64,000 bases of DNA from Flavobacterium sp. SUN052 (GTDB taxonomy: Bacteria > Bacteroidota > Bacteroidia > Flavobacteriales > Flavobacteriaceae), in contig NZ_JAPQNS010000010.1 in NCBI RefSeq assembly GCF_028867935.1, positions 262,075 to 326,074 on the forward strand. The letters are read 5' to 3'. Both the position numbers and the translations under genes were made by a program. The notes beneath the pieces were generated by a model. It was not told the origin of the DNA. It made no database searches and saw only the letters and a list, made by a program, of their open reading frames with translations. Shown here piece by piece: positions 1,383-54,310 of this stretch; the first letter of the stretch is position 1; each line of letters opens with the position of its first letter.

Positions 1383-3782
1383 GTGGGGAAGAGCGAGGCT
1401 AATTTTTGGAAACTACTTCTGTTGAGTTTACTGACCACTGCTGTGTGTCAGGCGCAACAGTTTGAGCTATCATATCCGGTAGCTCGTTTGGTGGTGCAGC
1501 GCGGTGCCGATGGTAACGGACGGATCTATGTGTCGGGCCGAATCGGTTTTGCTGCTGATCGCATCGAGGGTCAGCTCACAGCTGCTGCGCCGGGGCAGGG
1601 CTTCTCTACAGCTTGGCAAACTATCCAGACAAATCCCCAGAACGGGGTTTTCTACGGGCAGGTTACGGGCGCTGGTGGTTGGTATGTGCTAACCGTACGC
1701 GCCATCCGAAACAACATTATCATTGGCGAAACCTCAGTACGTCCTGTTGGCATTGGCGAAGTGTTTATCACAGCCGGACAATCTAATTCGCGGGGTTTGG
1801 GAACCGGCGATAATGATCTGGGTACGGCAACCGACCGGGTTAGCACCATCGACTCCATTAATCACTATTATCCACCCAACAATCAGCCACTTTTTTCGTC
1901 AGGAGATCCGATGCCGTTTCCTACGTATAAAGCCATGACGGCCACCCGGCGTGTATTTCCAATGGGCGAAAGTTCGTGGGGATGGGGCGAGTTGGGCGAT
2001 TACATTGTTAGCCGGTATAATGTGCCGGTGGTGTTTTACAATGCCGGTTGGGACTCATCGACAATTGAAAACTGGATCAACACGGCAAACGGTATTGAGG
2101 CCTGTAATCGTTATTTCTGTAATGCAAACTGGCCAAATTTACAGCCGTACACCAATCTTAAAAATATTCTCCAATACTACGGCTCTGTGGGAGGAGCGCG
2201 GGCTGTTTTGTGGCATCAGGGCGAAGCCGAGTATGTCGATAACAGCGGTGGCAGCGTTCCACAGTACGCCAATCGACTTCGGGATCTGATCGCTAAAACG
2301 CGCTCTGATTTTAGTGGTCGCCAACTTCCCTGGGTAATTGCCAGGGCTTCATTTGATGGCTCGGTTAGTCGGCCAGAGGTGATTGCAAAACAGCAGGAAG
2401 TAATTGATACGCCTAATTTGCTGGCGTTTCAGGGGCCACTTAACGATACCATTGTAAACCGGCGGGCGGGCAACACTGACGTGCATTTTGGCAATGTAGC
2501 CCGTTTGCAACCACACCCACAATATTTCAACAACCCGAATGCCATTCCAGCAAATATGGGTTTATCGCGGTTTGCGCGTAACTGGAACAATAGTCTTTCC
2601 AACACATTTTTCCAGTCAGCCACTCCAATTTTGCCCGAACAATTTGCCGTTACAGGCAATGTAGCGACCATTATTCCACCCGGCGATAGCCTGCGTTTAT
2701 CCATCTACACGGTTGGCTCCTTTGGTAATGACAACGGCTGGCAGGTGCAACTGCTCGACTCTAGTGGCCGATTTATTCGGTCGTTACCCAGTAGTGGTGT
2801 CAATCCGGTGAACACCAAGTTACCCGGCGATCTTACGTCAGGGTGGTTTCGGGTGCGGGTTGTCGGTACGAATCCGGTTGCGCCCGCTGTGCCAACCAAC
2901 AAGTTTCAGTTGGGCACGCCACTCCCACAACCCAGAGCTGATTTAAGTTTGTCGATGGAATCGAGCCAACGGGTTGTGCGCGTAGGCGAAACCTTTACGG
3001 TTCAAATCAGGGTGCAGAACACTGGCCCCGACCCGGCTACCAACGTGCAGGTGCAGAATCGACTACCCAGCAATCTGGCTATTGTTTCAACAGCCGGACT
3101 GGCCAACAATGGTTCTTCTTTAGTAGGCACAATTAGTTCAATCGCATCGGGCGCCACCACAACGCTTAGCTTTCAGGCCCAGGCCGTGGCAGAAGGAACA
3201 TTCCGAAATGCTGCCGAGATTACGCAGTCGGGCACAATTGACCCCGATAGTCAGCCCGCTACGGGTACCAAAACAGGACAGGACGATGAAGCTGGCACTG
3301 AATGGCGCACACCGCAGCCGGGTGGGGCTATATTCGAATCGCCTAATCCGAACCAAATTCCGCTTCCGCCGGTACAGTCTAACCAACCCACGCCTGATCC
3401 ATCAACGGCTGATCTGAGTTTGCAACTGGTGGTCAATAACCAGACGCCTGTGGTGAGCGAGGTTGTTTCGTATTCGCTGGTGGTGACTAATAGGGGAGGA
3501 GCAACGGCTTCCAATATCAGTGTTGGGGCCGTGTTACCAGCCGGTCTGAGCTATGTGAGCGGTTTATCGGCATCGGGGCAAACCATAACGGGAACCATTG
3601 GTAGTCTGACTGCGGGCAACAGTGCTGTTTTGGTTTTTCAGGCTCGTGCTACGAGTCTTGGTGAAGCTCTCTCCAAAGCTCAAATTACAACCGCTTCTCC
3701 CGCTGATTCGGACTCAACACCGAACAACGGGACAGATAATGGCGAAGATGATACAGCACAGGTTATGGTTAGAGTGCGGTAA
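1383..3782 (+). CDS. Secreted SGNH/sialate O-acetylesterase-like protein with two DUF11 domains
   Basis: A 799-residue secreted protein. The start is a GTG; no better in-frame start was seen, and the signal peptide (KLLLLSLLTTAVCQA, cleavage before QQ) begins 10 residues later. Residues about 120-420 form an SGNH hydrolase of the sialate O-acetylesterase/CE6 type: GQSNSRG carries the nucleophilic Ser, HQGEAEY is the conserved block, and DVHFG carries the Asp-His pair. Residues about 520-640 and 675-799 are two DUF11 beta-sandwich repeats ending in the typical DSDSTPNNG...EDD motifs. Such proteins remove acetyl groups from carbohydrates. No recognisable type 9 secretion C-terminal domain follows. 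It begins 18 nt after the J-protein stop and converges on the next gene with 36 nt between stops. Confidence 0.8.
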   Translation: MGKSEANFWKLLLLSLLTTAVCQAQQFELSYPVARLVVQRGADGNGRIYVSGRIGFAADRIEGQLTAAAPGQGFSTAWQTIQTNPQNGVFYGQVTGAGGWYVLTVRAIRNNIIIGETSVRPVGIGEVFITAGQSNSRGLGTGDNDLGTATDRVSTIDSINHYYPPNNQPLFSSGDPMPFPTYKAMTATRRVFPMGESSWGWGELGDYIVSRYNVPVVFYNAGWDSSTIENWINTANGIEACNRYFCNANWPNLQPYTNLKNILQYYGSVGGARAVLWHQGEAEYVDNSGGSVPQYANRLRDLIAKTRSDFSGRQLPWVIARASFDGSVSRPEVIAKQQEVIDTPNLLAFQGPLNDTIVNRRAGNTDVHFGNVARLQPHPQYFNNPNAIPANMGLSRFARNWNNSLSNTFFQSATPILPEQFAVTGNVATIIPPGDSLRLSIYTVGSFGNDNGWQVQLLDSSGRFIRSLPSSGVNPVNTKLPGDLTSGWFRVRVVGTNPVAPAVPTNKFQLGTPLPQPRADLSLSMESSQRVVRVGETFTVQIRVQNTGPDPATNVQVQNRLPSNLAIVSTAGLANNGSSLVGTISSIASGATTTLSFQAQAVAEGTFRNAAEITQSGTIDPDSQPATGTKTGQDDEAGTEWRTPQPGGAIFESPNPNQIPLPPVQSNQPTPDPSTADLSLQLVVNNQTPVVSEVVSYSLVVTNRGGATASNISVGAVLPAGLSYVSGLSASGQTITGTIGSLTAGNSAVLVFQARATSLGEALSKAQITTASPADSDSTPNNGTDNGEDDTAQVMVRVR

Positions 3783-3818: not shown

Positions 3819-6800
3819 TTAAACCATAACGGTTAAGGCTGTTTTGAGACGACCTACCAACGCTAAGCTATTTTTCGCTTTGTCTGGGCTCATGCCCAAA
3901 GCATCTTCCACAAACTCTAGGTGTTCAATTTCAGCTTGTTGGAGCCATTGACTGCCCATCTTTTTCCAGGCGGTTGTAAATTGTTGGAGAATATCCTCGT
4001 AGGTAACATCTTTATCACCGAGTTTATGGTCGAGGAGACTATGACATAACAGGAGCGTAGCTTCGGCTATCCAATCCCAGTACACTTTCTCATCGTCATC
4101 ACGATCGTGGATGGTAGTCAATTCTTTAGTAAGATCAGCCAGCAGGTCTCGTTTATCTTTTTGCCAGGAATGGGCACCCGTCAGCACCAGCGCTTGTTCG
4201 ATAATTAGCCAGTTGGTCAGCGGATAGTACTTCGTTTCCCCGCCTTTTACCGTGTAAGCGTTTTTGTAGAATGAGGCTGATTGTTCGTACGCCTTTTGTT
4301 TTGCGTCCTTATCAGTAGTGATCAGAGCCAGATTTTTATAAGCACTTCCCATCAAGTTTAGGCGTTCAGCGGTTTTGCCAAAACGCATCAGATTCTCCAC
4401 GTCTTTTATGGTTGTTTCAATAGCACCGGCAGCAACATCTGGGGTACTCTTTGCTTTTTTAACCTGGACGGCTTGCCACTTTAGCCGTGTGGTACAATAA
4501 CTCTCAATAGTCGACAAAGAGAAAGTAGCCCGCTCCTCCAACCAGAGTTTCTCAAACGTGGCCACCGCCAGTTCATACTCGCTCAGCCAACTGTACAGTA
4601 GCGCCTGAAGCTCCGTAACGCGCACGCTCTGTATAGAAGCCCGATTAACGGCCTGATCAATAGCTTCTATTGTTTTCAGTGCTTCATCTCGGTTATAGAG
4701 GCCACTTTCGATCTTGCCGAGCAAATTGCTCAGTTCAATTTCGGCTTCTTCGGCTACGACAAAGTCAAACTTAACATGAGGTTTTTGTGAATCTGCCGAC
4801 ATCGACAGTTTGTAGAACGGATCACCGTAGCACTGATAAGCTCCCCAGGTGTTGTTCTGCGAACCATACTGTGTGTATATACTTTTGCGGGCTTTCTGAA
4901 CGGCTTCGCCAAAGCTATTGCCTTCGAACAGGCATTGATAAAAACGCTCGGCAAAATCGAGAGCAGCACTGTCATTTACAGCCCAACCCGCCACAATTAC
5001 GGCCTTAACGCCGATCTCTATGAGTTGGGTGCCGATGTTAGCTGCCAACTGGAATCTACTTCGACTTAATTCCTCGGCTGCTCCATCGGCCTGACCCAGA
5101 AAGCAACAGTTCACAAATACCAATTCGGGCACGTTGCTCATCTGCTCAATGTACGCTGGGGTCAGATACGCTTCGGGGCCAATCAGCATTCCTGTCGGCC
5201 TTTTGGGGTCAGAAGCTGATTTAGGTATATCGTGGAATACACCATGTCCGGCGAGGTGGACAATCTTGTAATTTTTACAAAACAGAGTGCGGAGAATCTG
5301 AGCAGCCGAGGCATTAATGAGCTTGTTCACTTCGTAGCCTTGTACCGAAAGAAATTCGGCAACTTTTGTACCTTCCACCGATGCCGCCGGTAATTGATTG
5401 AACTTACCTTCTAAATTGGGATCGCCAATAACAATAGCTGTTCGCTCGGCAACGGGGGTGATATTGATGCGGAAATCGCCCGTTGCTAACTGACGGACCA
5501 TGCCAGCGTTAACGCACAAAGGCTGCGCGTCGGCGGCACTATCCTGTAACAATTCCCACGGGAAAGCGGCCGTGTATTTGTCGAGTATCCAGTTGATGTT
5601 GGTTTGCCGTTTCACCTGTGGCTTGAAGTCATTCGGAATCATCAACTCAAAAATGGCTCTGGCCAACTCGGGCGACCAATTGTCTTTCCGCGACAGATCT
5701 TCGAGCATGCCAGTCAGCGTTGCATTGAGAGTCCGTAATGATTTTTCTTCAAGACGGGCCGCATCCGTAGAAACGCTGAACTGTAACGTGCGCTGATCGT
5801 CTGATTCGGTTGCGCTACCCGGTGTTTGCCGCACCGTGATTCGGGTCCACCATTCGGTGGTATCGTCGATAGGCAAACGTTCGCGCCCACCGTCGAGTTT
5901 TTTGATGCCCCGCCCGGCTCTGATGATGTTTAGCGCCCGGTTTTCTTCCTGCTCAATGGCGCTCACGGCTTTGATGCACGCCAATGCACGGTCTTTGTAG
6001 AGTTCGATAAACTCGATGGTCTCTACAACGCGTGGGGTATCGTAAATCTGTCGAATCTTGGTGTTGGCATTCTGTACACCCTGAATGACAGCACGAACGG
6101 CACTGGCAATTGGCTGACCGCCATAGCCCGACCCAATCAGTAAGGCCGAAACCCCAATGCGTTTAGGGAGTGGTGTGCTGTTTGGTTGCCCGTCGGGCTT
6201 GTGGTTAAGCGTAGCCAGATACTTGGCGACTCCCTGCTCTACACTGCTGGTCAGTCGAAACTCTGTAAGCTCTCCCTGACGACCTAAACCCAGAATAACC
6301 GCACCCCGAATCTGTTTGCCAGTTTGGGAAATGAGGGTTTCACTGGTACCAAATGGCCCCGGATACAAGCCCAGCCGATGCCGTCGGCTCAACTCGCCAC
6401 TCAGATACCAATCGATGGCTTTCTCCGCGAAGAGAATACCGTCGTTCTCAAAATGGCCTGCCATAACCGGATACAGGGCATATTTCAAATCGCCATTGCT
6501 AACGGAAACGGATATAGGTACATCGCTTGGTACAAACCGGCTATTTGATTCTAATCCCAACAGCGTTTTCTCAACCCCTTCGGGCGATAAATTGAAATCG
6601 AAGGTTGTTTTGGCTTTGAACTCCGTATCAAGGCCGCGGATAGCTGGTTTGGTTTGACGCAATAGAGCTGTTGTGTCCGTGTTGAGCAGGTCGCTGATAG
6701 CAGCAAATAACTTCGGTTCGTTGGCCAGTTCGCCGTGCGGAACGTCGGAGAAAAAGACTGATTTCTGAATTTTCAGCGCATCGGGAATACCGCTTTCCCA

Positions 6801-9284
6801 GGTTACGCTTTCATCCCCCTCTTTTGTAGCCAGAAATTGCAACTCTTTCTGATTGCCTTTCTGAACAATTTGATACTTGCTGATCGTCTGCTGGTCTCGT
6901 CGCGATTGTCCGGCAATGTAAGCCGCTCGACTGAAGTCAATTTTTAGGGCACCTTTATTCACACTGGCGCGATACTTTCCGAACTCGTCTAGTAGGGGTT
7001 TGCTGGGGATGGGCCAGTCGGGATCGCCAAAAGCTTTTCGCATCTCGTCCCAGACTTGGACACTAGCAAAATCGTTATTCGGATCGGTAGCATCTAACGG
7101 TAGCAGGCTGAGAATACCAGGAAATTGGGTGAAGACCGAGAGCAAATCTTTTCGCGTGTGCGTCACGTCGATGTGGTCAAGGGTGCTGATCAGCGAATCG
7201 AGCCCAAACAATACATATGGAATGCGGAATGACCCGCCCAGCGGAGCGCCCAAAAATAACAGCCGAAAGTCGCGACTTGTATTCAGGGTTTGCCAGGTTT
7301 GAGCGTGGTTCAGGATAAAGTCGCGAATGAGGACCCCACCCATTGAATGCCCAATGAGTTTGATGGGTTGCCGGAACTTCAGCAGATTCAGCAGCTTTTG
7401 GTTGAGGGCTGCTGCATTATCGGCCATGCTGGCTCGCCAGTCGAACGGGAAGGTAACCACGTCATAATCTCGTTTCAGGTATTCCACCAGTTTGCGGTAC
7501 GAACTTCCTACCAGTCCATCGGCTCGTATGTTCAGGTTGTTTTCAGGGCTGTATTCTAAACGGCTCAGGCTACCGGCAACAAACCCAAAAAAGTTGATCC
7601 ACACCTGCTGGTCTTTCACCGTTAGTGTACTGCCCATAATGCCCGGTATCAATACCACAATGGGCTTCTGACCAGAAACGGTATCGGCAAATACCTTTCC
7701 GCCGGGTATCGACAGCTCAATATTTCTGATTTCCTGCGTAGTAAAGGCGCGGTTGTCCAGCTTCGAGAAACCCGATATAGGCGTATTGGCTGGGGTTTGC
7801 AAAGCCAGTCGTAGAATATCCTGGGTTCGAGAGTTGCTGAAATAACTAAAATGGCTGACCTCAGCGCTCTGATCAAAAAAATACTGAACCTTATCCGAAA
7901 TCCGCTTTGCCCCGTTGTACATAGAGCGCGTATCGACCACAAAATCGTTGTCGCCCAAAAAGAAAAGGTTCGACAATGCCACCTTGATAGCCTTCCATTG
8001 GGTACTCATCTCGGAATCTCCCGATATGATAATCAAAGGCGTATTAATGACCGTTTCAGGGTCAGCATTGTTGAGCATCTGGTTGAAAGGCGACCGGGGA
8101 CTTTGTGCTTCCAACCCCGGTAGAACCGATGCATCGTCTTTGGTTTTAATTAACTCGGCCAGCAGATCCTTGAAGGCAATGTAGGCGGGGTTAGCTGACA
8201 GCGTCGTTGCCAGGCCAACCAAGTTAAAAAGAACGTTGAAATAAATATCCAGTCGATGTGAGGCCAAAGTGGTGCCACTGGCCGTGCAGGCAACCCGGAT
8301 GAATTTGTCAATAAATATGCTTTTACCACGAACAGCGGCCTCGATTCGTTCGATCTGGTCGATGTCATGGGTTCTGTCTTGTTTTCGGAGGAAATCTTTT
8401 TCCTGAGCCGAGAACCCATTGGTGGCTGAATTGGCAAAAAATCGGTTCAGTGTATCGCCAACCAGCCCGCCCCGTGAGTGGCTAACCAGGGTTAACGTGG
8501 CTTTGGAAGGCAACTTGCCAACCAGATCCAGCACGTTGTCGAGTGGGCTTTTGGTAAGGGTTTCGTGTTCAAACGCCAGTACCTTTTCGCCGAACGTTTG
8601 GTTAATAAGTTGCCAAGACTGCGATTTACTTAAAGCGCCGAAAGATCCCAGCGTTGAAGAGGCCGTACCATGTAAGAAAAGCAGGTAATGACCGTCAGGT
8701 AACGATTTATTGGTGATGCTCAGGTCAAAATCACCTTCTGTGGTGCATTGAAGTGTATATAACCCTGGTTTATGATCAGACCCTTTAGGCAAGCCTAATC
8801 CGTGGTTTAACTGCTTTTGCTCCAGTTTACCCGCTAACCCCCTAACTACTGATTCAACTTCTTCATTGACCAGCTCTTCAACTCTATCCTTCAGAAATAT
8901 CTTAACGATTTTCAAAGCGACTCGCTGCAAAATTCCGCTACGGTTTTGTTCGCCTACGGTTAACTCAATGGGAATGTCAACAACGCTCTTTTCACCCAAC
9001 TCAACACTACGAACCTGGTTGGATGTACCAGGGAAAACGTCATCAATAGTCGTAAAGTCGCCCAGCCAGACTGTGCCATCATCAAACTGAAACTCAATAA
9101 CCTTGTCTTTATCCACGGTCTCTGGTTCCGACGCTATGACATTGCCACGGGTATCCGGACTGATTGTATAGGTTTTTTCGAGCGTCAGCGTGCCCGTTTT
9201 GGTGCCCGCTCCCTCCATATCTACTGTGCCGGGAATGCGGATAGTTAACGCTTGATCGGGAGAAGAAGAGTTAGAGTTGATCAT
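3819..9284 (-). CDS. Giant CHAT protease fused to two lipase-like alpha/beta hydrolases and a TPR-like tail
   Basis: 1821 residues from ATG at 9284 (MINSNSSS); an upstream in-frame ATG at 9353 would add 23 hydrophobic residues and looks less likely. Hydrolase 1, about residues 195-480: LLFLHGT, nucleophile in SHSRGG (Ser270), probable Asp447 and His478. Hydrolase 2, about 540-860, resembles LCAT: PGIMGSTL, GHSMGG (Ser647), GDESVTW (Asp824), VPHGE (His850). CHAT caspase-like domain, about 1215-1495: FPWELL, HLAGHG (His1347) and VNCCFLG (Cys1393 or Cys1394). Residues 1505-1821 are helical and TPR-like. All catalytic dyads or triads look intact. No signal peptide is evident, so it is probably cytoplasmic. 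CHAT domains cleave partner proteins in bacterial conflict systems; a lipase unleashed by proteolysis is inference. No obvious partner gene adjoins it. Confidence 0.8.
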   Translation of the reverse strand: MINSNSSSPDQALTIRIPGTVDMEGAGTKTGTLTLEKTYTISPDTRGNVIASEPETVDKDKVIEFQFDDGTVWLGDFTTIDDVFPGTSNQVRSVELGEKSVVDIPIELTVGEQNRSGILQRVALKIVKIFLKDRVEELVNEEVESVVRGLAGKLEQKQLNHGLGLPKGSDHKPGLYTLQCTTEGDFDLSITNKSLPDGHYLLFLHGTASSTLGSFGALSKSQSWQLINQTFGEKVLAFEHETLTKSPLDNVLDLVGKLPSKATLTLVSHSRGGLVGDTLNRFFANSATNGFSAQEKDFLRKQDRTHDIDQIERIEAAVRGKSIFIDKFIRVACTASGTTLASHRLDIYFNVLFNLVGLATTLSANPAYIAFKDLLAELIKTKDDASVLPGLEAQSPRSPFNQMLNNADPETVINTPLIIISGDSEMSTQWKAIKVALSNLFFLGDNDFVVDTRSMYNGAKRISDKVQYFFDQSAEVSHFSYFSNSRTQDILRLALQTPANTPISGFSKLDNRAFTTQEIRNIELSIPGGKVFADTVSGQKPIVVLIPGIMGSTLTVKDQQVWINFFGFVAGSLSRLEYSPENNLNIRADGLVGSSYRKLVEYLKRDYDVVTFPFDWRASMADNAAALNQKLLNLLKFRQPIKLIGHSMGGVLIRDFILNHAQTWQTLNTSRDFRLLFLGAPLGGSFRIPYVLFGLDSLISTLDHIDVTHTRKDLLSVFTQFPGILSLLPLDATDPNNDFASVQVWDEMRKAFGDPDWPIPSKPLLDEFGKYRASVNKGALKIDFSRAAYIAGQSRRDQQTISKYQIVQKGNQKELQFLATKEGDESVTWESGIPDALKIQKSVFFSDVPHGELANEPKLFAAISDLLNTDTTALLRQTKPAIRGLDTEFKAKTTFDFNLSPEGVEKTLLGLESNSRFVPSDVPISVSVSNGDLKYALYPVMAGHFENDGILFAEKAIDWYLSGELSRRHRLGLYPGPFGTSETLISQTGKQIRGAVILGLGRQGELTEFRLTSSVEQGVAKYLATLNHKPDGQPNSTPLPKRIGVSALLIGSGYGGQPIASAVRAVIQGVQNANTKIRQIYDTPRVVETIEFIELYKDRALACIKAVSAIEQEENRALNIIRAGRGIKKLDGGRERLPIDDTTEWWTRITVRQTPGSATESDDQRTLQFSVSTDAARLEEKSLRTLNATLTGMLEDLSRKDNWSPELARAIFELMIPNDFKPQVKRQTNINWILDKYTAAFPWELLQDSAADAQPLCVNAGMVRQLATGDFRINITPVAERTAIVIGDPNLEGKFNQLPAASVEGTKVAEFLSVQGYEVNKLINASAAQILRTLFCKNYKIVHLAGHGVFHDIPKSASDPKRPTGMLIGPEAYLTPAYIEQMSNVPELVFVNCCFLGQADGAAEELSRSRFQLAANIGTQLIEIGVKAVIVAGWAVNDSAALDFAERFYQCLFEGNSFGEAVQKARKSIYTQYGSQNNTWGAYQCYGDPFYKLSMSADSQKPHVKFDFVVAEEAEIELSNLLGKIESGLYNRDEALKTIEAIDQAVNRASIQSVRVTELQALLYSWLSEYELAVATFEKLWLEERATFSLSTIESYCTTRLKWQAVQVKKAKSTPDVAAGAIETTIKDVENLMRFGKTAERLNLMGSAYKNLALITTDKDAKQKAYEQSASFYKNAYTVKGGETKYYPLTNWLIIEQALVLTGAHSWQKDKRDLLADLTKELTTIHDRDDDEKVYWDWIAEATLLLCHSLLDHKLGDKDVTYEDILQQFTTAWKKMGSQWLQQAEIEHLEFVEDALGMSPDKAKNSLALVGRLKTALTVMV

Positions 9285-9511: not shown

Positions 9512-9547
9512 AAAAAAAGGTGGCCTGACTAGAGCCAGACCACCTTT
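9512..9547 (-). terminator. Rho-independent terminator after kdsA
   Basis: An imperfect stem pairs AAGGTGGCCTGACT with AGCCAGACCACCTT around a short loop. Read on the minus strand it is followed by seven T residues, so it ends the kdsA transcript 22 nt after the stop codon. No similar T run follows on the plus strand beyond three T. Confidence 0.8.
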
Positions 9548-9568: not shown

Positions 9569-10381
9569 TTAAATCACCGCTTCCCGAACTCGTACCAACC
9601 GCTCCAGCAATGCTTCCAGTTGATCCAGTGGTAGCATATTTGCACCGTCAGATTTAGCGCAGGATGGGTCGGGGTGAGTTTCAATGAACAAACCGTCGGC
9701 ACCCACAGCAATGGCGGCCTTGGCAATAGTCGCAATAAGCGCAGGTTTGCCACCGGTTACGCCCGATGCCTGGTTGGGTTGTTGCAGAGAATGGGTGCAG
9801 TCCATCACTACGGGCACTCCAAATGACTGCATGGCCGGAATGTTCCGGTAGTCCACCACAAGGTCGCCGTAACCGAACGAATTGCCCCGGTCGGTCAGGA
9901 TTACAGAAGCGTCGGGGTTGATGGCCCGTACTTTTTCGGCGGCAAAGCTCATGCTCTCGCCCGACAAAAACTGGCCTTTTTTGATATTTACTGCTTTTCC
10001 CGTCCGGGCGGCTGCTTCAATCAGTTCGGTTTGGCGGCACAGAAAAGCCGGAATCTGTAATACATCTACAGCCTGAGCAGCCATGGCGGCTTCGTGCGAT
10101 TCGTGAATGTCGGTTACGGTTGGTATGTTGAAGGTATCACCCACTTCTTTCAAAATTGACAGGGCCAGCTCATCGCCAATGCCCGTAAATGAATTGGCTT
10201 TGGTGCGGTTAGCTTTGCGATAGGAGCCTTTGAATATGTATGGGATACGAAGTCGGTTAGTGATTTCGACGATGCGTTCAGCAATTTGTAGCGCCATATC
10301 CCGACCCTCGATAGCACAGGGGCCAGCCATCAAAAAGAAGTTGGACGAGTCGGTATGGTGAAGCTTGGGTAGTTGAATCAT
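9569..10381 (-). CDS. kdsA: 3-deoxy-8-phosphooctulonate synthase (KdsA)
   Basis: A 270-residue cytosolic enzyme that condenses phosphoenolpyruvate with D-arabinose 5-phosphate to give KDO 8-phosphate for lipopolysaccharide core synthesis. The TIM-barrel family motifs are all visible: AGPCAIEG near the N-terminus, FKGSYRKANRT, FLCRQTEL, GQFLSGE, and the C-terminal ETHPDP. Length is normal for the family. Cys22 in AGPC occupies the position of the metal-ligand Cys in metal-dependent KdsA enzymes such as that of Aquifex, whereas the metal-independent E. coli type has Asn, so a metal-dependent enzyme is predicted. The gene is monocistronic: a terminator follows it and acpP diverges from it. Confidence 0.95.
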   Translation of the reverse strand: MIQLPKLHHTDSSNFFLMAGPCAIEGRDMALQIAERIVEITNRLRIPYIFKGSYRKANRTKANSFTGIGDELALSILKEVGDTFNIPTVTDIHESHEAAMAAQAVDVLQIPAFLCRQTELIEAAARTGKAVNIKKGQFLSGESMSFAAEKVRAINPDASVILTDRGNSFGYGDLVVDYRNIPAMQSFGVPVVMDCTHSLQQPNQASGVTGGKPALIATIAKAAIAVGADGLFIETHPDPSCAKSDGANMLPLDQLEALLERLVRVREAVI

Positions 10382-46738: not shown

Positions 46739-49700
46739 TTACTCCGCCAGATTAAACCGCACTTGCACACCACCAGCAGTAGTAGCCCGGCGGTACGAGT
46801 TTAGCACGAGCGGATCATTGTAGGTCCGGTCGAAGTACAAGTTCAGGTTCAGTCGGCGGCTCACCACATAGTTGATCGTGGGGCGAATCTGGAAATTGTA
46901 ATTACCCGACGTGATGATCTGCTCCCCATCCAGTTTCCGCTGAATAGCCCGCGTGTCGCGGAGCGTAAACTGGAATTGGAACGTCATGTCGTTTTTAAGT
47001 TTTTTGCGTTGACCATTCACCAAAAACGGTAGCTTGAAATTGTTCTTGGTAAAGCCCACCGTTGTGGTAATGTCCTTATTGGTCAGATCCGCTACCTGCG
47101 AGTTCGAGAAGTTTAAGGCTACGTCGCGGCTCTGGTTGTATTCAAGCCGGGCCGACCAGCGGTTTTTGGTCTGGAACTGAACGCCAATCAAGGGCGCAAA
47201 TCGTTCCTGCATCTGAATCGTGCTCATCACAAACACCGGAATGTAATCGCCGTTGAGCGTGGCGCGGCTGGCTAGCGGGTATCCCTGAACGGCGAGATTC
47301 ACGAAGGTGGCTGTGTAATCGAGTGACGAAATGAAGTTGCCGACACTATAGTTCGATGAGTAGCTGTGAGCTATTGTGAACGAGCTAAACCGCTTCTTGA
47401 ATCCCGGCAGACTGCTCAAACCTGTATAGTCGACGCGCCAGTTGGGTAGCGGGAAGTTGTAGAACGGCGAGAGTTTGGTCTTCTCCACATCCTGTCCACT
47501 ATAAGCCGCAAAGAAAGCCGGAATCAAAACGTCCTGCGCATTTTTGTTATACACACCTGTCCGATCAGGATTAGCTTCCAGTAAACGTCTTTGAATTATT
47601 GCCCGGTTGTCTTCAAATCGTTTGAACAACGAGGACGCGCTCAGGTCAACTTTAGGGTTGAAGCCTAAATCCTTAAACGCCGTGCGGAACGACCAGAACG
47701 ACATGCTAAACTGTCCATTGCGAACCGGACTCTGGCTCACGAAATCTCCCCCAATCGTTTCGGGCCGGTAGAACTCCTGATAGGCATCCGAGCGAGTCAG
47801 ACGCATCTGAATGTTCATACGGAAGTCTTTAAAAGGCTCCAGGTTGGTTGTCGCCGTAAAGTTCTTGGCAATGCTTTGCTGGAATGCCGTGTTCAGGACC
47901 GTACTCCGAGTTGTCCAGCCGTTGTTGGCCGCTTTGATCTGGATTTCGCGATCCTGGCTACCCAGCACAAACGGTAAGCCCGGTGCCCCGGAATTATCGA
48001 GGCCAAAGAAACGCGGGCTACGCAGGAAGCCCGGCAAAATGGTCGACTCCTGAATGATGTATGAGAAGTTGATACCCCGCACCGTCAGCAAAGCTCGGGT
48101 AGCGGCTTTAATCAGCCGGTTGTCGTTGCGGGTAATTTCTTCAATATCACCTGGGCTACGGGCAAAGTTTTTGCGCACGGGCGAAGGCGTATTGGCCCAG
48201 CGTAGCGCCTTAATTTTGTTGTAGAGCAACACAAAGTCAATCCGCCCCGTGATACCCCGCTCGCGGTTGTTGCGCAACACGTTACCAAACGATGTACCCG
48301 TTGAATCGACGAGTCCGTATGAGTTAGCCTGAAACTGATAGCCCATGGCGTAGTTTACGTCGGCAGCAATCCAGTCGGTCAGTGGGAACTTGTCTAGTGG
48401 CAAACGATAGGTGAACCGGATGTCCTGTTGGTAGTTTTTCATCCGACCCAGTTTCTGAACGCTCCGCCATACCGAGTCACGTTTCCAGCCTTCGCTGACA
48501 TCACCTGCCGGTTCATCGATAATGGCGTTGGCCTGCGCTTTGTAGGTCAGCAGGAGGTTTTTGCTGAGGTTCCAGGTCAGGTCGTAGTAGCGATTGAACA
48601 GGAAGTATTTCTCGAACAGAGGTGCTATTCCCGCCGTTGTCAAGCCGTTTGAAGCCGGGTCGGAGTTACGAAGTTGCGTTTTGATAAAGCTCCGGTCAAC
48701 ATCCGTTCGGATCGACACGATGGATGGTAGCGGGTTGAAATTGAAGTCTTTGAGCCAGAACAAATATTTGCGTTCCAGGCTTTTTACGCTCTTGAACGGT
48801 TCCCAGTTGATCGGTTGCGGACTGTAGGTATACGCAATGCCACCCCGATACTGTCGCTGCAAATACTGATCGGTCAGGATGTTGGTGCGAACAATGTCGT
48901 TGAAAGCGTACGAGAACCCAAAGTTTTCAATGTCGTAGAAATGGTTTTTACCCGCTGTTCCCACCTTCACCTTGCGCACATTGGAGAGGTTCAATCCCCG
49001 GCGCGTGGTGCGGTCTTCGACCATCCGCCGGTAAGCCGCCCGCGCTGACCCGTCGGGGAAAGCCATCAGCGCTTCTTCGAGTGGGTTGTCGGGGTCGAGC
49101 GGGTCAAAATGGGGAGCCACCCGGCGCGAGTCCATGTTGAGGTACATTGGAATGCGAAGCCCCCAGCTTTCCGGGAAGAATTTGTCAATCGAAAGCGCCG
49201 ATGATACCCCATATTCTGTGGTGAGGTCACGCGTTCGTTCGCCTACTTTGGTTTGCACTCCACCAAACCCGAACGTGGTAATTTTGCCGGATGCCGTCAC
49301 GTTACCAAGGTCGGCTAGTTTTACGTTTAGGGCGCCAACTCCCGCCCGCCCGGCCGTTTGGTCGTAACCGTTAGTGCGTAGCTCGTTCACCCAAATGGTG
49401 AAGGTTTTGGGTTGCTGATCTTCTGTTTTCGGGTTGCGAATACCAATCATTACGGTTTGTACCGCGCTCAAATCGGGGTTACCCACAACCGTAATCTTAA
49501 ACCGGCCATCCGACGACCGACCTTCAAACGGCACCGATGATTTACGAGTCAGTTGCTGATTACGAGCATTTTTCAAGTCAACCAAGTCCTGAAGAGCAAT
49601 GTCAATCTCGTTATTGGCGGGCCAAATTCGACGCTGGAATGTTTCGTCATTGGGGTCACCGTTGATGTTGGAAGGAGTTGCCTCCAGCCCCGGTGTTTCA

Positions 49701-52700
49701 ATCTCGTAATAGTTGTCGGTGAAGTCAGTACCAACGCGCATAAATGCCGATACCGCACCACTTTCGTCGGCCTGGTTATGCATATGCACAAACATTTTCA
49801 GCCGCTTGCGGAATAGCAGATCGAGGTTGGTGATGCGGAAGGCACCCCGCGAATCGCCGTCGCGCAGGTTGGTTACACTCAGTGCCATCGACTGTTCATT
49901 CAGTTCAACGTTGGCAATCTGGGTGAAGTCGCGGTCGCGGATAAAGCCTGGCGGTACGGTGTAGGTGTACTTCGTTTGGGGAGCTACACCACCCGATGTT
50001 GCCGTAGTGCTTTCCTGGCTGTTTTCTTCAATGTTTACCGTGGTGACCTTAAACTGAGCGTCGTAAGGTTCCGGTACTTCCTGCAAACCCCGCTGATTCA
50101 GGTCACCCAGATACCGGCGGTACTGATTGGCTTCCAGTTGCAACTGTCCAAAGCGGAGCACAACTGGCTCCTGGAAATCAGTCAGATACATCCGAATAAA
50201 CCGGATCGACTTGAAACCGTTGATGTTACCCACCTTCCGGCCGAATTCCCGCACCGGAACGCGGAACTGATACCAAACCGTACCGTTCGTTTCAACTTTA
50301 TCAACAATGTATCCCTTACCAACCTGCAACTGTCCCGGCCGGAGATCAATCGAATATTCGTAGTAAGCTTCATTGTCGTTGATGGTATTGTCGATGTTCA
50401 AATCTTCAATATCGGGCAGGTTGGTCGACGAAGGAGTCAGATACTGGTTGCGGTTGTTGAGGTCTTTTGAGTTACCATCCATACCCATGTACTGTTTGTA
50501 GCGAGCCACAATGTACTTCACGGAGTCGGCCTGCGGACCGAGGTAGAACTTGAAGTCGTCATTGGAAGGGTCACCCAAAATCTGCTCATACACGTCTGGG
50601 CTAACCCGTTGCCGAATATCGGCTAAGAAGGCCTGGAACTTAACTTGCTCCTGAGCGTTGCTCAAGCCATCCAAACCAACGTCCTGCTGCTCCAAAGCAC
50701 CTTCAGTATTCTGGAACGCATTAGTCACAAATTGTTGCTTCGTTGCGAAACCCCAGGGAGTTTCTTCATTGGCAGGACTCCGATCGTCACCACTGATTTT
50801 TAGGCCATTCTCGAAATTATAACGGCCGTCTTTGATCACATCTTCCGAAATGTCGCCGAGGTTGAACAATAGTCGTCCACCCGTAGTGTTGTTGCGGTTG
50901 CGCGAGGGATCAGGTGTGCCGCGTACAACGCCATTTTCACCCGGTAGAAACGGGTCCATCATCCAGAACGTCATGGTCTCGACGTTGGCATTATCGAAGT
51001 CAATATCAGACCCAACTGCGCGGGTTACGGCCCCAAAATTCTGGCGTGGGTTTTTCAGCGTACCGTCGGCGTTCAGGTCGGGGTTGTAATTGTACATACC
51101 CCGTTCTGCCGGGAAATACGCTACATCGAGCACGTTGGTTGGTAACACAACCGTGGGCGTCGACCGGCCGGGGAACAACTGGGTAGGCAGGAAGAATGTC
51201 TCGTAGTAATTCTGCTTTTCCTCGTTGGTGAGGTTCAGTGGGATATTGTTGCCGAGGTTATCGTTGTAAATGGTCTGGTCGACAGAATACACCGAAATCC
51301 GGGCCCGGTTATATGCGTATTCAAGTGGGTTAGCCAGCGTTCCCTGTGGGAATTGCAGGGGTGTAGCGCCCAAACGCCAGCGGGTAGGCTGACGGGTCAG
51401 ATCATAAATGGTACGGGCTGCCTCAAAATCGTCGATAAACGAGTTATCGTTTACGCGGGGAGCAACGCCGGGGATCAACTGCGCCACTTCGCCCTGAAAC
51501 GCGATGGTCGACATTTCTTTAGTTTGAATAAACGGCAACCGGTCCAGAATACGCGTCAAACCGGGCGAGTCGCGCCGAAGGTTGAAGTTGAAACCCAGAA
51601 TGGTGTTGTTCACCGGCTCGTTGCCGATGGCTACACGAGTCAGGAAACCCGCTGGGGTTTCGCGCATGTTCATGGCCGTCATACCGATGCTCATATCGGG
51701 GCTAAGGGCATAATCCAGGCGCGTACCGATCAACCGGCGAATCTGGTTCTGGAACAGATCGGGGAGTTCGTAGGCAATCCTAATTTCGCGACCCGATGCT
51801 ACCACGCCTTCATTCAGAATGCGGAGTTGACTCGTTGATGACTCATAAATATAATCGCCACCGGGGGTAAGTGGCACGCCACCCGCCGTTACCTGAACCG
51901 ATTCCTCTTTCACACCATACGGAAGGGTAACAGCTGGGCCAGAGGCCGATTGCACGTTGCCACGGAGGAAAAACTTGTTGCGGTCGGGCAACTGCTGAGC
52001 ATCAGCAAGAGTCCTGCGGTATAGCTCGTCGAACACATACTTAGCCCGCAAATCTTCTTCGGAGGCATCGAATTGTCGCGATAGATACGAGCCGAATGGT
52101 TCCAGAATCGGGAAGATGATACGACCGTACCGGGGATCAACGGTCACGTTCTCTACAAAGTCGAAGTTGCCGTCAGGTTGCCTGTCCAACTGCTGATTCA
52201 ACTGGTCCATGCCAAAAACCTGTACCAGTGGCTTATCACGCAGATTCGCCCCTTCCTGCAAATTCGGATTATCAACGCCGGTTTGGTCGTCTTTGTACAC
52301 AATTCGTAACTGGAATCCCTGACGATTAATTTGTTGATTGCTAAGGGTATAGATGTTTTTCATCATCAAGTCCCACATTGGCAACTGGAGGTTGTTGCGG
52401 ATGGTGGCCGACTTAATCATCTTCAGCACCAGCACCTGGTCGTCTTTCAGATTTTGGTAATCTTCGGTGAGTTCACCCACTTTATAGTGGCGACCTTGGT
52501 AGGTGTACTCGTAGGCAACAGCCAGTACTTCGTCGTTGCGCAGGGGCGTCAACAGCGAGATATAGCCTAGTTCCGGGTGAACCTTGTACTCCCGATCTGT
52601 CAGGCGTTTGGCACCGCGTAGCAGGTCATAGTCTACACCTTTCTGGAAACCAAAGGCATCGAGTGCAAAATTGGTCCGGTCAACCTGCCGAATGTCGGGG

Positions 52701-54310
52701 GTGGCACGGAGCCGGGCAAACAAAGTATTCGATTCGTTGGCGGCTACGGCGGCACCCGCTACAATTTGCACGTTAGGGTTGTTGGGGCTGTTGAGCCGCC
52801 GATTTTCACCCAAATCCGAGAAACCAGCAATGTTGCGCAACGACTCGGTAGTGTTGGTCCGGTTGGTTACGTACACTTCTACCCGCGTAATAGTAACGCC
52901 AGTGGTGATCATAGGCAACGACTTCAGACCACGTTCGTAATTGTCCCGGAAAAACTGCGAGAGGAAAAAGTGCCGGTTTTCGTCGTATTGATCGGCGCGA
53001 AGTTCAAACGGGCGGCCCACTTGCCCAGCCCGAATTGTAATTTCCTGTTTCTTCGAGCGTTGCTGCGACCCAACTAGAGTAGCGTTTAAGCGGCCAAAAC
53101 GCAACTGGGTTTTTATACCGAACAGGTTTTGTACCCCCGGAATTAACTGGCTATTGATTGGCCAGCTAATGTTACCGAGTTCGAGACCCTGGAGGATGTT
53201 TTCGTTCTTGGGCGTAAAATCAGGCACCGAGGGTGCCCCCAAACTCCGGCTTAAATTCGGAGCATTGGGCATACCCGGAAGACCACCCGGCAGATTGGGC
53301 AACAGACCCTCTGGTTTATAATTCAGTTTGAGGGCGTTCTCAAAGTTGAAACTGGCTTTAGTATCAAAGTTGGCCAGCATTCCCAGGCGTTCACCAATCT
53401 TGCCGTTAAAGTTGATGTTGATCTGTTCGTTGAAAATGAAGTTACCCTGCCGCCGTTGCTGAACCGGAATCTGCGGATTGTCGATGAACTGGTGCAGATA
53501 GCCGAAATCGAGCATCACGAAACCATTAGGCTTGAAATCGACAGCGGTGCCGCCAAACAACCGATCCACCACGGGTGGTAGTTCGAGTTTAGGGAACAAG
53601 CCACGCCCTTTTACCGCACTATTTCCATCCCGCTGGGAACTATAATCCCGCCAAACCGACTGCTGAGCCCGCTCATTCTGCAAACGGTTATAGCTGTCGT
53701 ACGGAATATTTTCGCCCGGCCGGAAAGGCAATCCTGGAGTGGGGTAAGTAGGCGAGAAAGAGGGGGCTGCGGGTGTACCCGTAGCTGATTGAGGAGCGCT
53801 TGGTGCTGTACTTTGTCCGGTACCCAGATCGCCAGATCGTCCGACCCGCTCGTAGACAGACAGGTTTTTCCCGTTGTCCAGACGAACGTCGGTACCTACT
53901 GCCTTGGGGTCGCGGAGAATAAACGGTGAGCGCGAAGTGCGTTCCGAAAAGCGGGTTGCGTATCGATCGGGCCAGTTGATAGTGGGCCGTCGTCCCGACG
54001 AACGAGCCGCTCTGATACTGTCGGCCCGATCCTGAATAGCCTGCCGGGCATTGGCCCGCCGGGTTGAGTCGGCTTGTTGCGCTTCTGTGCGGGTAGGCGT
54101 TCCGCGGTCCGGCGTTCCGGTTGTGGTGCGCCGGGGCACGGTTCCCCTTCGCCCATTTTGAGCCCACACGGGAGTATCCAACGCCCCAATGGCGGTGAAA
54201 CCCAGTATAGTAACCGTACATACCCGTATCACGGTCTTCTGGCGCACACGGCGACGAAACGTAAAAAAGGGCAGGAAAAGGGAATTGTGAACAGAGTAAG
54301 GGTTCACCAT
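46739..54310 (-). CDS. sprA: SprA, outer-membrane translocon of the type 9 secretion system
   Basis: 2523 residues, close to the usual size (about 2300-2500). An unusually long N-terminal region precedes the signal core (VIRVCTVTILGFTAIGALDTPVWA, before QNG). A Pro/Thr/Ser/Arg-rich stretch follows to about residue 200. SprA-specific segments are GFVMLDFGYLHQFIDNPQIP, NLFGIKTQLRFGRLNATLVGSQQRSKKQEITIRAG (and similar), SYLSRQFDASEEDLRAKYVFD and the C-terminal strand NYVVSRRLNLNLYFDRTYNDP. SprA forms the 36-strand barrel that exports T9SS cargo, needed for gliding and for secretion of cell-surface adhesins and hydrolases. Its stop is followed by a terminator; ruvA lies upstream on the same strand, as I recall for other Bacteroidota. 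Confidence 0.95.
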   Translation of the reverse strand: MVNPYSVHNSLFLPFFTFRRRVRQKTVIRVCTVTILGFTAIGALDTPVWAQNGRRGTVPRRTTTGTPDRGTPTRTEAQQADSTRRANARQAIQDRADSIRAARSSGRRPTINWPDRYATRFSERTSRSPFILRDPKAVGTDVRLDNGKNLSVYERVGRSGDLGTGQSTAPSAPQSATGTPAAPSFSPTYPTPGLPFRPGENIPYDSYNRLQNERAQQSVWRDYSSQRDGNSAVKGRGLFPKLELPPVVDRLFGGTAVDFKPNGFVMLDFGYLHQFIDNPQIPVQQRRQGNFIFNEQININFNGKIGERLGMLANFDTKASFNFENALKLNYKPEGLLPNLPGGLPGMPNAPNLSRSLGAPSVPDFTPKNENILQGLELGNISWPINSQLIPGVQNLFGIKTQLRFGRLNATLVGSQQRSKKQEITIRAGQVGRPFELRADQYDENRHFFLSQFFRDNYERGLKSLPMITTGVTITRVEVYVTNRTNTTESLRNIAGFSDLGENRRLNSPNNPNVQIVAGAAVAANESNTLFARLRATPDIRQVDRTNFALDAFGFQKGVDYDLLRGAKRLTDREYKVHPELGYISLLTPLRNDEVLAVAYEYTYQGRHYKVGELTEDYQNLKDDQVLVLKMIKSATIRNNLQLPMWDLMMKNIYTLSNQQINRQGFQLRIVYKDDQTGVDNPNLQEGANLRDKPLVQVFGMDQLNQQLDRQPDGNFDFVENVTVDPRYGRIIFPILEPFGSYLSRQFDASEEDLRAKYVFDELYRRTLADAQQLPDRNKFFLRGNVQSASGPAVTLPYGVKEESVQVTAGGVPLTPGGDYIYESSTSQLRILNEGVVASGREIRIAYELPDLFQNQIRRLIGTRLDYALSPDMSIGMTAMNMRETPAGFLTRVAIGNEPVNNTILGFNFNLRRDSPGLTRILDRLPFIQTKEMSTIAFQGEVAQLIPGVAPRVNDNSFIDDFEAARTIYDLTRQPTRWRLGATPLQFPQGTLANPLEYAYNRARISVYSVDQTIYNDNLGNNIPLNLTNEEKQNYYETFFLPTQLFPGRSTPTVVLPTNVLDVAYFPAERGMYNYNPDLNADGTLKNPRQNFGAVTRAVGSDIDFDNANVETMTFWMMDPFLPGENGVVRGTPDPSRNRNNTTGGRLLFNLGDISEDVIKDGRYNFENGLKISGDDRSPANEETPWGFATKQQFVTNAFQNTEGALEQQDVGLDGLSNAQEQVKFQAFLADIRQRVSPDVYEQILGDPSNDDFKFYLGPQADSVKYIVARYKQYMGMDGNSKDLNNRNQYLTPSSTNLPDIEDLNIDNTINDNEAYYEYSIDLRPGQLQVGKGYIVDKVETNGTVWYQFRVPVREFGRKVGNINGFKSIRFIRMYLTDFQEPVVLRFGQLQLEANQYRRYLGDLNQRGLQEVPEPYDAQFKVTTVNIEENSQESTTATSGGVAPQTKYTYTVPPGFIRDRDFTQIANVELNEQSMALSVTNLRDGDSRGAFRITNLDLLFRKRLKMFVHMHNQADESGAVSAFMRVGTDFTDNYYEIETPGLEATPSNINGDPNDETFQRRIWPANNEIDIALQDLVDLKNARNQQLTRKSSVPFEGRSSDGRFKITVVGNPDLSAVQTVMIGIRNPKTEDQQPKTFTIWVNELRTNGYDQTAGRAGVGALNVKLADLGNVTASGKITTFGFGGVQTKVGERTRDLTTEYGVSSALSIDKFFPESWGLRIPMYLNMDSRRVAPHFDPLDPDNPLEEALMAFPDGSARAAYRRMVEDRTTRRGLNLSNVRKVKVGTAGKNHFYDIENFGFSYAFNDIVRTNILTDQYLQRQYRGGIAYTYSPQPINWEPFKSVKSLERKYLFWLKDFNFNPLPSIVSIRTDVDRSFIKTQLRNSDPASNGLTTAGIAPLFEKYFLFNRYYDLTWNLSKNLLLTYKAQANAIIDEPAGDVSEGWKRDSVWRSVQKLGRMKNYQQDIRFTYRLPLDKFPLTDWIAADVNYAMGYQFQANSYGLVDSTGTSFGNVLRNNRERGITGRIDFVLLYNKIKALRWANTPSPVRKNFARSPGDIEEITRNDNRLIKAATRALLTVRGINFSYIIQESTILPGFLRSPRFFGLDNSGAPGLPFVLGSQDREIQIKAANNGWTTRSTVLNTAFQQSIAKNFTATTNLEPFKDFRMNIQMRLTRSDAYQEFYRPETIGGDFVSQSPVRNGQFSMSFWSFRTAFKDLGFNPKVDLSASSLFKRFEDNRAIIQRRLLEANPDRTGVYNKNAQDVLIPAFFAAYSGQDVEKTKLSPFYNFPLPNWRVDYTGLSSLPGFKKRFSSFTIAHSYSSNYSVGNFISSLDYTATFVNLAVQGYPLASRATLNGDYIPVFVMSTIQMQERFAPLIGVQFQTKNRWSARLEYNQSRDVALNFSNSQVADLTNKDITTTVGFTKNNFKLPFLVNGQRKKLKNDMTFQFQFTLRDTRAIQRKLDGEQIITSGNYNFQIRPTINYVVSRRLNLNLYFDRTYNDPLVLNSYRRATTAGGVQVRFNLAE

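What the first reader, a model, noticed from the sequence alone, without database searches (positions are those of the whole stretch)
3819..9284. A single protein joins two lipase folds, a CHAT caspase-like protease and a TPR-like tail
Seen directly: two separate GxSxG-type hydrolase sites (SHSRGG and GHSMGG) with plausible Asp and His partners, a complete CHAT dyad (HLAGHG and VNCC), and about 300 helical residues after it, all in one 1821-residue frame. Known: CHAT proteases activate partner toxins or gasdermins in bacterial immunity. Inference: the protease may sense a signal through its helical tail and free, activate or destroy the lipase domains, giving a membrane-damaging response within one polypeptide. 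The gene stands alone, without helper genes, which makes a self-contained system plausible. About 300 residues between the second lipase and CHAT (about residues 880-1190) are unassigned; the stretch with AVILGLGRQGEL and LLIGSGYGG could be one more domain.
Basis: partly seen in the sequence, partly recalled or inferred. Interest (0 to 1): 0.8.

Follow-up and report, generated by a model that had tools for sequence, protein, structure and literature searches.

The report
Protease-lipase fusion, probable bacterial immune effector
One large bacterial protein carries two lipase-type enzymes, a caspase-like protease and a sensor-like tail whose predicted fold resembles the regulatory region of the human stress kinase ASK1; it is probably a stand-alone, membrane-attacking immune or cell-death protein that comes and goes between related bacteria.

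The parts
3819..9284 (-). whole gene, 1821 residues, ATG start at 9284, stop at 3819-3821
8730..9284 (-). N-terminal beta-rich domain (residues 1-185); its first part is found also in hydrolase-free relatives
   Evidence: secondary structure; segment HMM (residues 1-69 of P0194 and P0198, E 5e-6 and 3e-7)
7770..8729 (-). hydrolase 1 (residues 186-505), DUF7379, putative triad Ser270-Asp447-His478
   Evidence: profile match to a solved putative lipase 7x2p E 0.0023
7680..7769 (-). linker between the hydrolases (506-535), low confidence at 511-528, with Arg520 kept in 120 of 121
6660..7679 (-). hydrolase 2 (536-875), LCAT / lysosomal phospholipase A2 fold, putative triad Ser647-Asp824-His850
5940..6533 (-). 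macro-like domain (918-1115), closest in sequence to the leucine aminopeptidase N-domain; conserved His944, Asp948
4791..5861 (-). CHAT / separase-like protease (1142-1498), dyad His1347-Cys1394 (His1343 and Cys1393 also invariant in 121 of 121)
3822..4763 (-). helical tail (1508-1821), TPR-S, ASK1 central-regulatory-region-like fold
9521..9537 (-). terminator-like hairpin between kdsA and the gene (a consensus match; the number of such matches in the region, 6, equals chance, 6.3)
9569..10381 (-). flank: kdsA-like gene (name recalled), upstream neighbour
   Evidence: used for the empty-site test
1383..3782 (+). flank: 799-residue secreted-looking protein (SGNH/DUF11-like by eye), tail-to-tail neighbour; a relative of it lies directly beside kdsA in four genomes without the gene at that site

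Best explanation
A cytosolic, single-gene conflict (immune or programmed-death) effector. The constant frame (N-domain, macro-like domain, CHAT protease, TPR-S/ASK1-like tail) is the sensing and switching part; the two hydrolases are its cargo, most likely phospholipases that act on the cell's own membrane. A cue of infection or stress, sensed through the tail and/or the macro-like domain, switches the CHAT protease on, and the protease and lipases together stop or kill the cell. Shown: domains, intact catalytic residues, modular cargo, patchy gain or loss, TIR linkage in part of the family. Inferred: cytosolic location (no signal peptide seen by eye, no strongly hydrophobic stretch), signal, order of events, substrate, outcome.
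For: Four Pfam families above cut-off. Both putative triads and the CHAT dyad invariant in 121 of 121. Fold matches to Csx29 and separase (CHAT), ASK1 regulatory region (tail), macro-like domains and lysosomal PLA2/LCAT. Fixed frame with 0, 1 or 2 hydrolases: 5, 16 and 123 of 345 proteins. Patchy: 7 of 200 genomes of the S. arboris family, and the site is empty in 4 of the 30 kdsA loci fetched, the ones where the other flank could be recognised. TIR within 5 kb in 6 of 12 copies, expected 0.15. Relatives lie beside TIR-nSTAND1-LRR, ThsB_TIR, a SLOG protein and a caspase-TIR protein, and one between two TIR-nSTAND1-WD40 proteins on a Rhizobium plasmid. Seven plasmid records cover 72-81% of the chain at about 30% identity (22 records match in all). 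Kaur et al. 2020 (PMC7159879, passages) report that caspase-superfamily domains in VMAP systems always have a neighbouring alpha/beta-hydrolase gene.
Against: No defence profile matches (PADLOC 0 families). The window copy has no TIR gene beside it; 44 of 50 neighbourhoods show no TIR within 5 kb. In the G452 family 28 of 33 full-length loci fall into three shared neighbourhoods (9, 15 and 4 loci) beside ordinary-looking genes, which suggests stable vertical inheritance and fits a physiological role as well. CHAT is kept without hydrolases. The 11 genomes were chosen after seeing their neighbourhoods, and one of the six positives (G099) rests on a TIR match below the Pfam cut-off.
Confidence: 0.55

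Rival explanations
1. A physiological (non-immune) enzyme: a regulated lipase-protease in membrane turnover or stress response, inherited vertically and lost in many lineages.
For: Shared chromosomal places beside ordinary-looking genes in the family of G452 (9, 15 and 4 loci); no conflict genes recognised by eye beside the window copy and no TIR in its first 20 kb.
Against: Only 7 of 200 and 33 of 390 genomes of two families carry a relative; empty site in relatives; plasmid relatives; TIR linkage in part of the family; caspase-like protease plus TPR-S.
Confidence: 0.25
2. Self-activation as the first reader proposed (a variant of the best explanation, not exclusive of it): CHAT cuts its own chain, for example at the linker between the hydrolases, to free or destroy the lipases.
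For: Low-confidence linkers at 511-528 and 914-921; Arg520 in the first linker kept in 120 of 121 and not aligned in any of the 16 proteins without hydrolase 2.
Against: CHAT dyad kept 5 of 5 in proteins with no hydrolase. Arg520 may be structural; the second linker is not conserved. No full-chain model.
Confidence: 0.2
3. Thoeris-like effector (also a variant of the best explanation): a TIR enzyme makes an ADP-ribose-type signal which the macro-like or TPR-S part binds.
For: TIR and ThsB_TIR neighbours of some relatives; macro-like fold; experimental precedents for macro and caspase-like effectors in type II and IV Thoeris (PMC12847820 passages; PMC11204291 abstract and section 7).
Against: PF01661 (Macro) matches none of 24 members; the sequence is closer to the aminopeptidase N-domain, which is not a known ADP-ribose sensor (recalled). 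No TIR beside the window copy; 44 of 50 loci without one.
Confidence: 0.3

Closest known systems
TPR-CHAT protease Csx29 (Craspase, type III-E CRISPR)
   Different: Csx29 has its repeats before CHAT (passage), and is governed by Cas7-11; here two hydrolases and a macro-like domain precede CHAT and the repeats follow it
Type II and type IV Thoeris effectors (TM-macro ThsA; caspase-like protease)
   Same: macro-type fold and caspase-type protease, which in Thoeris act downstream of TIR (passages in PMC12847820; the primary papers of Rousset 2025 and Sabonis 2025 are not held)
   Different: here both are in one chain with two lipases; no TIR beside the window copy; macro-like part is nearer the aminopeptidase N-domain
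VMAP / MoxR-vWA ternary conflict systems with caspase plus alpha/beta-hydrolase
   Same: pairing of a caspase-superfamily protease with an alpha/beta hydrolase (PMC7159879, passages)
   Different: there the hydrolase is a neighbouring gene in a MoxR-vWA setting; here one gene, no MoxR or vWA recognised in the window. The terms CHAT and lipase do not occur in that paper's main text
TPR-S sensor proteins and the ASK1 regulatory region
   Different: fused to a protease and lipases; ligand untested. That TPR-S was proposed to read NAD-derived signals and is related to ASK is recalled (Burroughs and Aravind 2020); the paper is not held
Lysosomal phospholipase A2 / LCAT, and Tle4
   Different: bacterial fusion, probably cytosolic; activity untested

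Membership tests
CHAT protease (PF12770) | profile score above curated cut-off | tested here: met
   93.7 bits against 24
CHAT protease (PF12770) | His-Cys dyad | tested here: met
   His1347 and Cys1394 121 of 121, 137 of 138 and 129 of 130 non-gap cells among 224 further proteins
CHAT protease (PF12770) | caspase/separase fold | tested here: met
CHAT protease (PF12770) | proteolytic activity | not testable with these tools
   -
TPR-S (PF20308) | profile score above cut-off | tested here: met
   39.6 bits against 27.6; 20 of 20 members, window included, matched at E<=0.1
TPR-S (PF20308) | binds an NAD-derived signal (a prediction in the literature, recalled) | not testable with these tools
   -
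LCAT/lysosomal PLA2 (PF02450) | profile above cut-off and catalytic triad | tested here: met
   40.1 bits against 21; Ser647, Asp824, His850 121 of 121; triad geometry not measured
LCAT/lysosomal PLA2 (PF02450) | phospholipase or acyltransferase activity | not testable with these tools
   -
DUF7379 (PF24096) | profile above cut-off | tested here: met
   101.4 bits against 33
Macro domain (PF01661) | Pfam Macro profile match | tested here: not met
   0 of 24 members at E<=0.1
Macro domain (PF01661) | macro fold | tested here: met
Aminopeptidase N-domain (PF02789) | profile match | tested here: inconclusive
   12 of 24 members, best E 3.6e-7, but no match at E<=0.1 for the window's own domain
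Thoeris | TIR (ThsB) gene in the same operon | tested here: not met
   no TIR match in the first 20 kb of the window; among 20 scanned neighbours of relatives, ThsB_TIR above cut-off in L042 and L059
VMAP / MoxR-vWA ternary system | MoxR and vWA genes in the neighbourhood | tested here: inconclusive
   neighbours in the window were only read by eye: kdsA, acp, fabF, rnc on one side, SGNH/DUF11-like and DnaJ-like on the other
Known anti-phage systems in PADLOC-DB 2.0 | profile match | tested here: not met
   0 families of 5027 models at E<=1

The most novel reading that the evidence does not exclude
A one-polypeptide Thoeris-like effector: TIR enzymes, adjacent in some relatives and acting at a distance in others, make an ADP-ribose-type signal that the macro-like domain and/or the ASK1-like TPR-S tail reads, which switches on a caspase-like protease built into the same chain as one or two phospholipases. 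The cargo slot between the N-domain and the macro-like domain is exchangeable (0, 1 or 2 hydrolases).
Probability: 0.3. Interest if true: 0.85.

Novelty: new variant of a known kind. Interest (0 to 1): 0.6.

Why it matters
If right, protease, lipases and a sensor resembling the ASK1 regulatory region are joined in one bacterial protein, so a caspase-to-membrane death pathway could be tested with a single gene. The natural series with 0, 1 and 2 hydrolases separates what the sensor-protease frame does from what the lipases add. It would also link the TIR/ADP-ribose signalling of Thoeris with the TPR-S/ASK lineage.

Tried and rejected
Split-gene form: the second copy in G063 (L034) appeared as an 880-residue lipase gene overlapping a 959-residue protease gene. 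Reading the junction shows a one-base frame difference inside a conserved stretch, so it is a frame-broken copy (or a sequence error), not an evolved split; I dropped it as evidence for a two-gene system.

Canonical Macro family: rejected as a family name for the middle domain (0 of 24), kept as a fold.

Phage origin: no match in 50,697 phage records and no viral structure match at E<=0.001. Element ends at the insertion: one 10-base inverted match near the two ends (3804 and 9423), which I judge to be within chance; no element identified. Base composition is not unusual (0.49 against 0.50).

Hydrolase 1 did not appear in the VIA rows shown, where other domains filled the list; this is no evidence against the fold.

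Literature: no paper holding DUF7379; none holding CHAT, TPR-S and lipase together; none holding pYEATS, CHAT and TPR. Searches gave background only. Only open-licence PMC texts are held, so absence from print is not shown. Papers of which passages were seen without use here: PMC10907252, PMC8195603, PMC12419801, PMC9503650, PMC12881547, PMC12799240, PMC12162218, PMC12926258; of PMC11417357 only the outline with abstract.

Partial inputs: the two structure alignments held 53 of the 120 listed homologues; the domain alignments A3, A4 and A5 held 24, 21 and 20 of 46 worked-out stretches.

Full report
The observation. The frame at 3819-9284 (-) is real: 1821 residues from an ATG. Pfam gives DUF7379, LCAT, CHAT and TPR-S, all above their cut-offs. 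NCBIfam gives only a weak match to the HetF model (15.7 bits against a cut-off of 1200) and PADLOC none.

Conservation. A search of about 5.8 billion proteins gave 687 relatives at E<=1e-10 (120 listed; only the 7991 candidates sharing most words were scored). Of the 120 listed, all but P0098 carry all four Pfam families as precomputed. In a MAFFT alignment of the window protein and these 120, Ser270, Asp447, His478, Ser647, Asp824, His850, His1343, His1347, Cys1393 and Cys1394 are each 121 of 121. Set against the usual CHAT motif (recalled), Cys1394 is the likely nucleophile; it is kept 16 of 16 in one-hydrolase relatives, where Cys1393 is 15 of 16 and His478 15 of 16. In the 224 further proteins, many of them fragments, a few cells depart: for example Ser647 136 of 138, His850 132 of 135, His944 159 of 163 non-gap cells.

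The middle domain. By sequence it is closest to the aminopeptidase N-domain: PF02789 in 12 of 24 members scanned (best E 3.6e-7), no match for the window's own domain, and no match to Macro PF01661 in any of the 24; the only solved matches at E<=1 are two aminopeptidases, at E 0.055 and 0.92. Its most conserved stretch, Gly943-His944-Phe945 and Asp948 (121, 121, 121 and 120 of 121), sits between a strand and a helix, and Gly1055-Gly1056 (121 of 121) in another such loop. In the ThsA macro domain, ADP-ribose is held by two loops of this kind (PMC11204291, section 7). That the positions correspond is my reading of the strand order, not a measured superposition. His944 and Asp948 are kept 5 of 5 in proteins without hydrolases, but 3 of 4 in the plasmid set.

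A fixed frame with exchangeable cargo. Profiles of six segments were run over all 345 proteins collected. The full order occurs in 123; N-domain, hydrolase 1, macro-like, CHAT, tail in 16 (1375-1429 residues); N-domain, macro-like, CHAT, tail without any hydrolase in 5 (P0190, P0191, P0192, P0194, P0198; 1014-1017 residues; one is from Chitinophaga sp. SYP-B3965 on a 3.5 Mb contig, so not a contig-end fragment; the N-domain match covers its first 69 residues). The remaining 201 hold shorter or other orders; many are marked partial or lie on short contigs, so I do not read architecture from them. Two of the listed proteins, P0032 and P0078, carry YEATS-type families in addition (PF03366, PF20305). 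On plasmids, relatives of 1795 and 1788 residues in Azotobacter and Paracoccus yeei have DUF7379, LCAT and CHAT but no TPR-S match at E<=0.001.

Distribution. The tool's 'relatives' of the window's genome gave 1 of 60, the genome itself, but the others are 0.3-5.7 Mb and seem not to be close kin (see below). In the family of Spirosoma arboris (found) 7 of 200 genomes carry it, one of them twice. In the phylum sample 9 of 395 match, S. arboris included, of which four (G274, G408, G511, G643) have shorter architectures. In the unnamed family of G452 (probably Chitinophagaceae, from names such as Terrimonas and Chitinophaga among the homologues; inferred) 6 of 245 match with a full-length query and 33 of 390 in a larger sample with a hydrolase-free query. 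Plasmids: 22 records match; seven cover 72-81% of the query, at about 30% identity, and several others only a domain. Phages: none.

Empty site. The kdsA-like neighbour was found in 145 of 150 genomes of the S. arboris family; the closest are G127 (98% over residues 1-191 only, locus not fetched), G114 (95%), G098 and G062 (93%). Of the 30 loci fetched, four (L127, L128, L129, L133, from G114, G098, G062, G089) have a relative of the 799-residue flank gene (53-72% identical) within 1.5 kb downstream of kdsA; in L128 the two frames abut. None of these four genomes is among the seven carriers (G062 is listed there without a match; the other three, by their handle numbers, are in the unlisted rest). 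The window gene is thus a single-gene insertion at a junction conserved in these four, or was lost in them. No element ends were found.

Neighbourhoods. Fifty loci, the window included, were compared. In the G452 family 28 of 33 full-length loci fall into three shared neighbourhoods: 9 loci with a 353-residue cluster (by eye fructose-bisphosphate aldolase, with phosphofructokinase and methylglyoxal synthase on the other side in most), 15 with a 179-residue cluster, 4 with a third. This looks like stable, vertical inheritance beside ordinary genes. In four Spirosoma-type loci (L007, L035, L036, L037) a shared flank gene lies close downstream of the gene, with different inserts. Pfam scans of 20 chosen neighbours found TIR-nSTAND1-LRR 162 bases upstream in L007; TIR-nSTAND1-LRR and caspase-TIR around the frame-broken copy in L034, with a TPR-S/MAP3K_TRAF_bd protein further on; a weak TIR match 3 bases upstream in L036 (E 1.4e-4) and 43 bases downstream in L037 (E 6.7e-4), both below cut-off; a SLOG (STALD) protein 12 bases downstream in L038; ThsB_TIR 394 bases downstream in L042; and nSTAND1 87 bases upstream and TIR/ThsB_TIR 60 bases downstream in L059. 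On Rhizobium leguminosarum plasmid pRL31b3 a CHAT-TPR-S relative lies between two TIR-nSTAND1-WD40 proteins, not directly adjoining them.

Is the TIR link more than chance? In 11 genomes with 12 copies, 78 TIR_2 matches at E<=0.001 were placed. Six of 12 copies have one within 5 kb against 0.148 expected (P about 1e-9), five within 3 kb against 0.118; the estimate uses rounded genome sizes and ignores contig ends. One of the six (G099) rests on a match below the Pfam cut-off. The 11 genomes were chosen after their neighbourhoods had been seen and leave out nearly all carriers of the G452 family. A phmmer search with seven TIR stretches over all 50 loci finds TIR within 5 kb in 6 of 50, none in the window and none in the 28 shared-place copies of the G452 family. 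The link seems real for a part of the family and is absent for the rest.

How it most likely works. Shown: intact catalytic residues, constant frame, cargo variation, patchiness, partial TIR linkage. Inferred: the protein waits in the cytosol (no signal peptide by eye; highest 19-residue hydropathy 1.46); a cue read by tail and/or macro-like domain switches CHAT; the lipases then damage the membrane. Csx29 is a worked example of allosteric switching of CHAT through its repeats (PMC10028731, passages). Macro and caspase-like effectors activated by TIR products are reported for type II and type IV Thoeris (PMC12847820, passages). Kaur et al. note that caspase-superfamily domains in VMAP systems always have a neighbouring alpha/beta-hydrolase gene (PMC7159879, passages): here the two are one protein. 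Whether CHAT cuts its own linkers is open: Arg520, in the low-confidence linker between the hydrolases, is kept in 120 of 121 and has no aligned residue in the 16 proteins without hydrolase 2, but it may be structural.

Against this. CHAT stays intact in the five hydrolase-free relatives, so it probably has other substrates there. Shared chromosomal places in one family fit a physiological role. No known defence profile matches. The window copy has no partner gene at hand.

Verdict. It is a new variant of a known kind: a caspase-type conflict effector with lipase cargo. The self-contained-system idea is plausible but not shown.

Noticed in passing
G000 (whole genome of the window): Five further CHAT matches: three in frames of 947-984 residues and two in 523-residue frames; the window protein is the only TPR-S match.
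   Followed up: no
G000:C37:192134-192517 (L050): A second DUF7379 match in a 1140-residue frame of the same genome.
   Followed up: no
L064 8169-13892: 1907-residue NACHT-TPR-LRR-TIR-CHAT protein beside an AAA ATPase and a vWA (CoxE-like) protein, resembling a MoxR-vWA-type conflict system; its CHAT is 54% identical to that of P0194.
   Followed up: partly
L034 3852-5240: 462-residue protein joining MAP3K_TRAF_bd (PF13281) and TPR-S, a bacterial relative of the ASK regulatory region, in the same cluster as the frame-broken copy.
   Followed up: no
L037 12161-12724 and L047 3665-4351: Similar-looking small proteins (MASYN...) lie 43-45 bases downstream of the gene in two genomes; weak TIR_2 match in the first, the second not scanned.
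   Followed up: partly
P0032, P0078: Relatives with extra YEATS-type families (PF03366, PF20305).
   Followed up: no
G001-G059: The genomes given as same genus and order as the window's genome are 0.3-5.7 Mb, while G114, G098 and G062 of the Spirosoma arboris family share 93-95% identical kdsA: the window's genome may be filed under the wrong genus.
   Followed up: partly
L124 4360-7605, L125 4238-7522: A gene of 1081 or 1094 residues directly upstream of the Paracoccus plasmid relatives, overlapping by 4 bases or 37 bases away; no family in one, a solute-binding domain in the other.
   Followed up: partly
window 46739-54310 (-): 2523-residue protein that looks like the SprA gliding/secretion protein of Bacteroidota (by eye, name recalled).
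   Followed up: no
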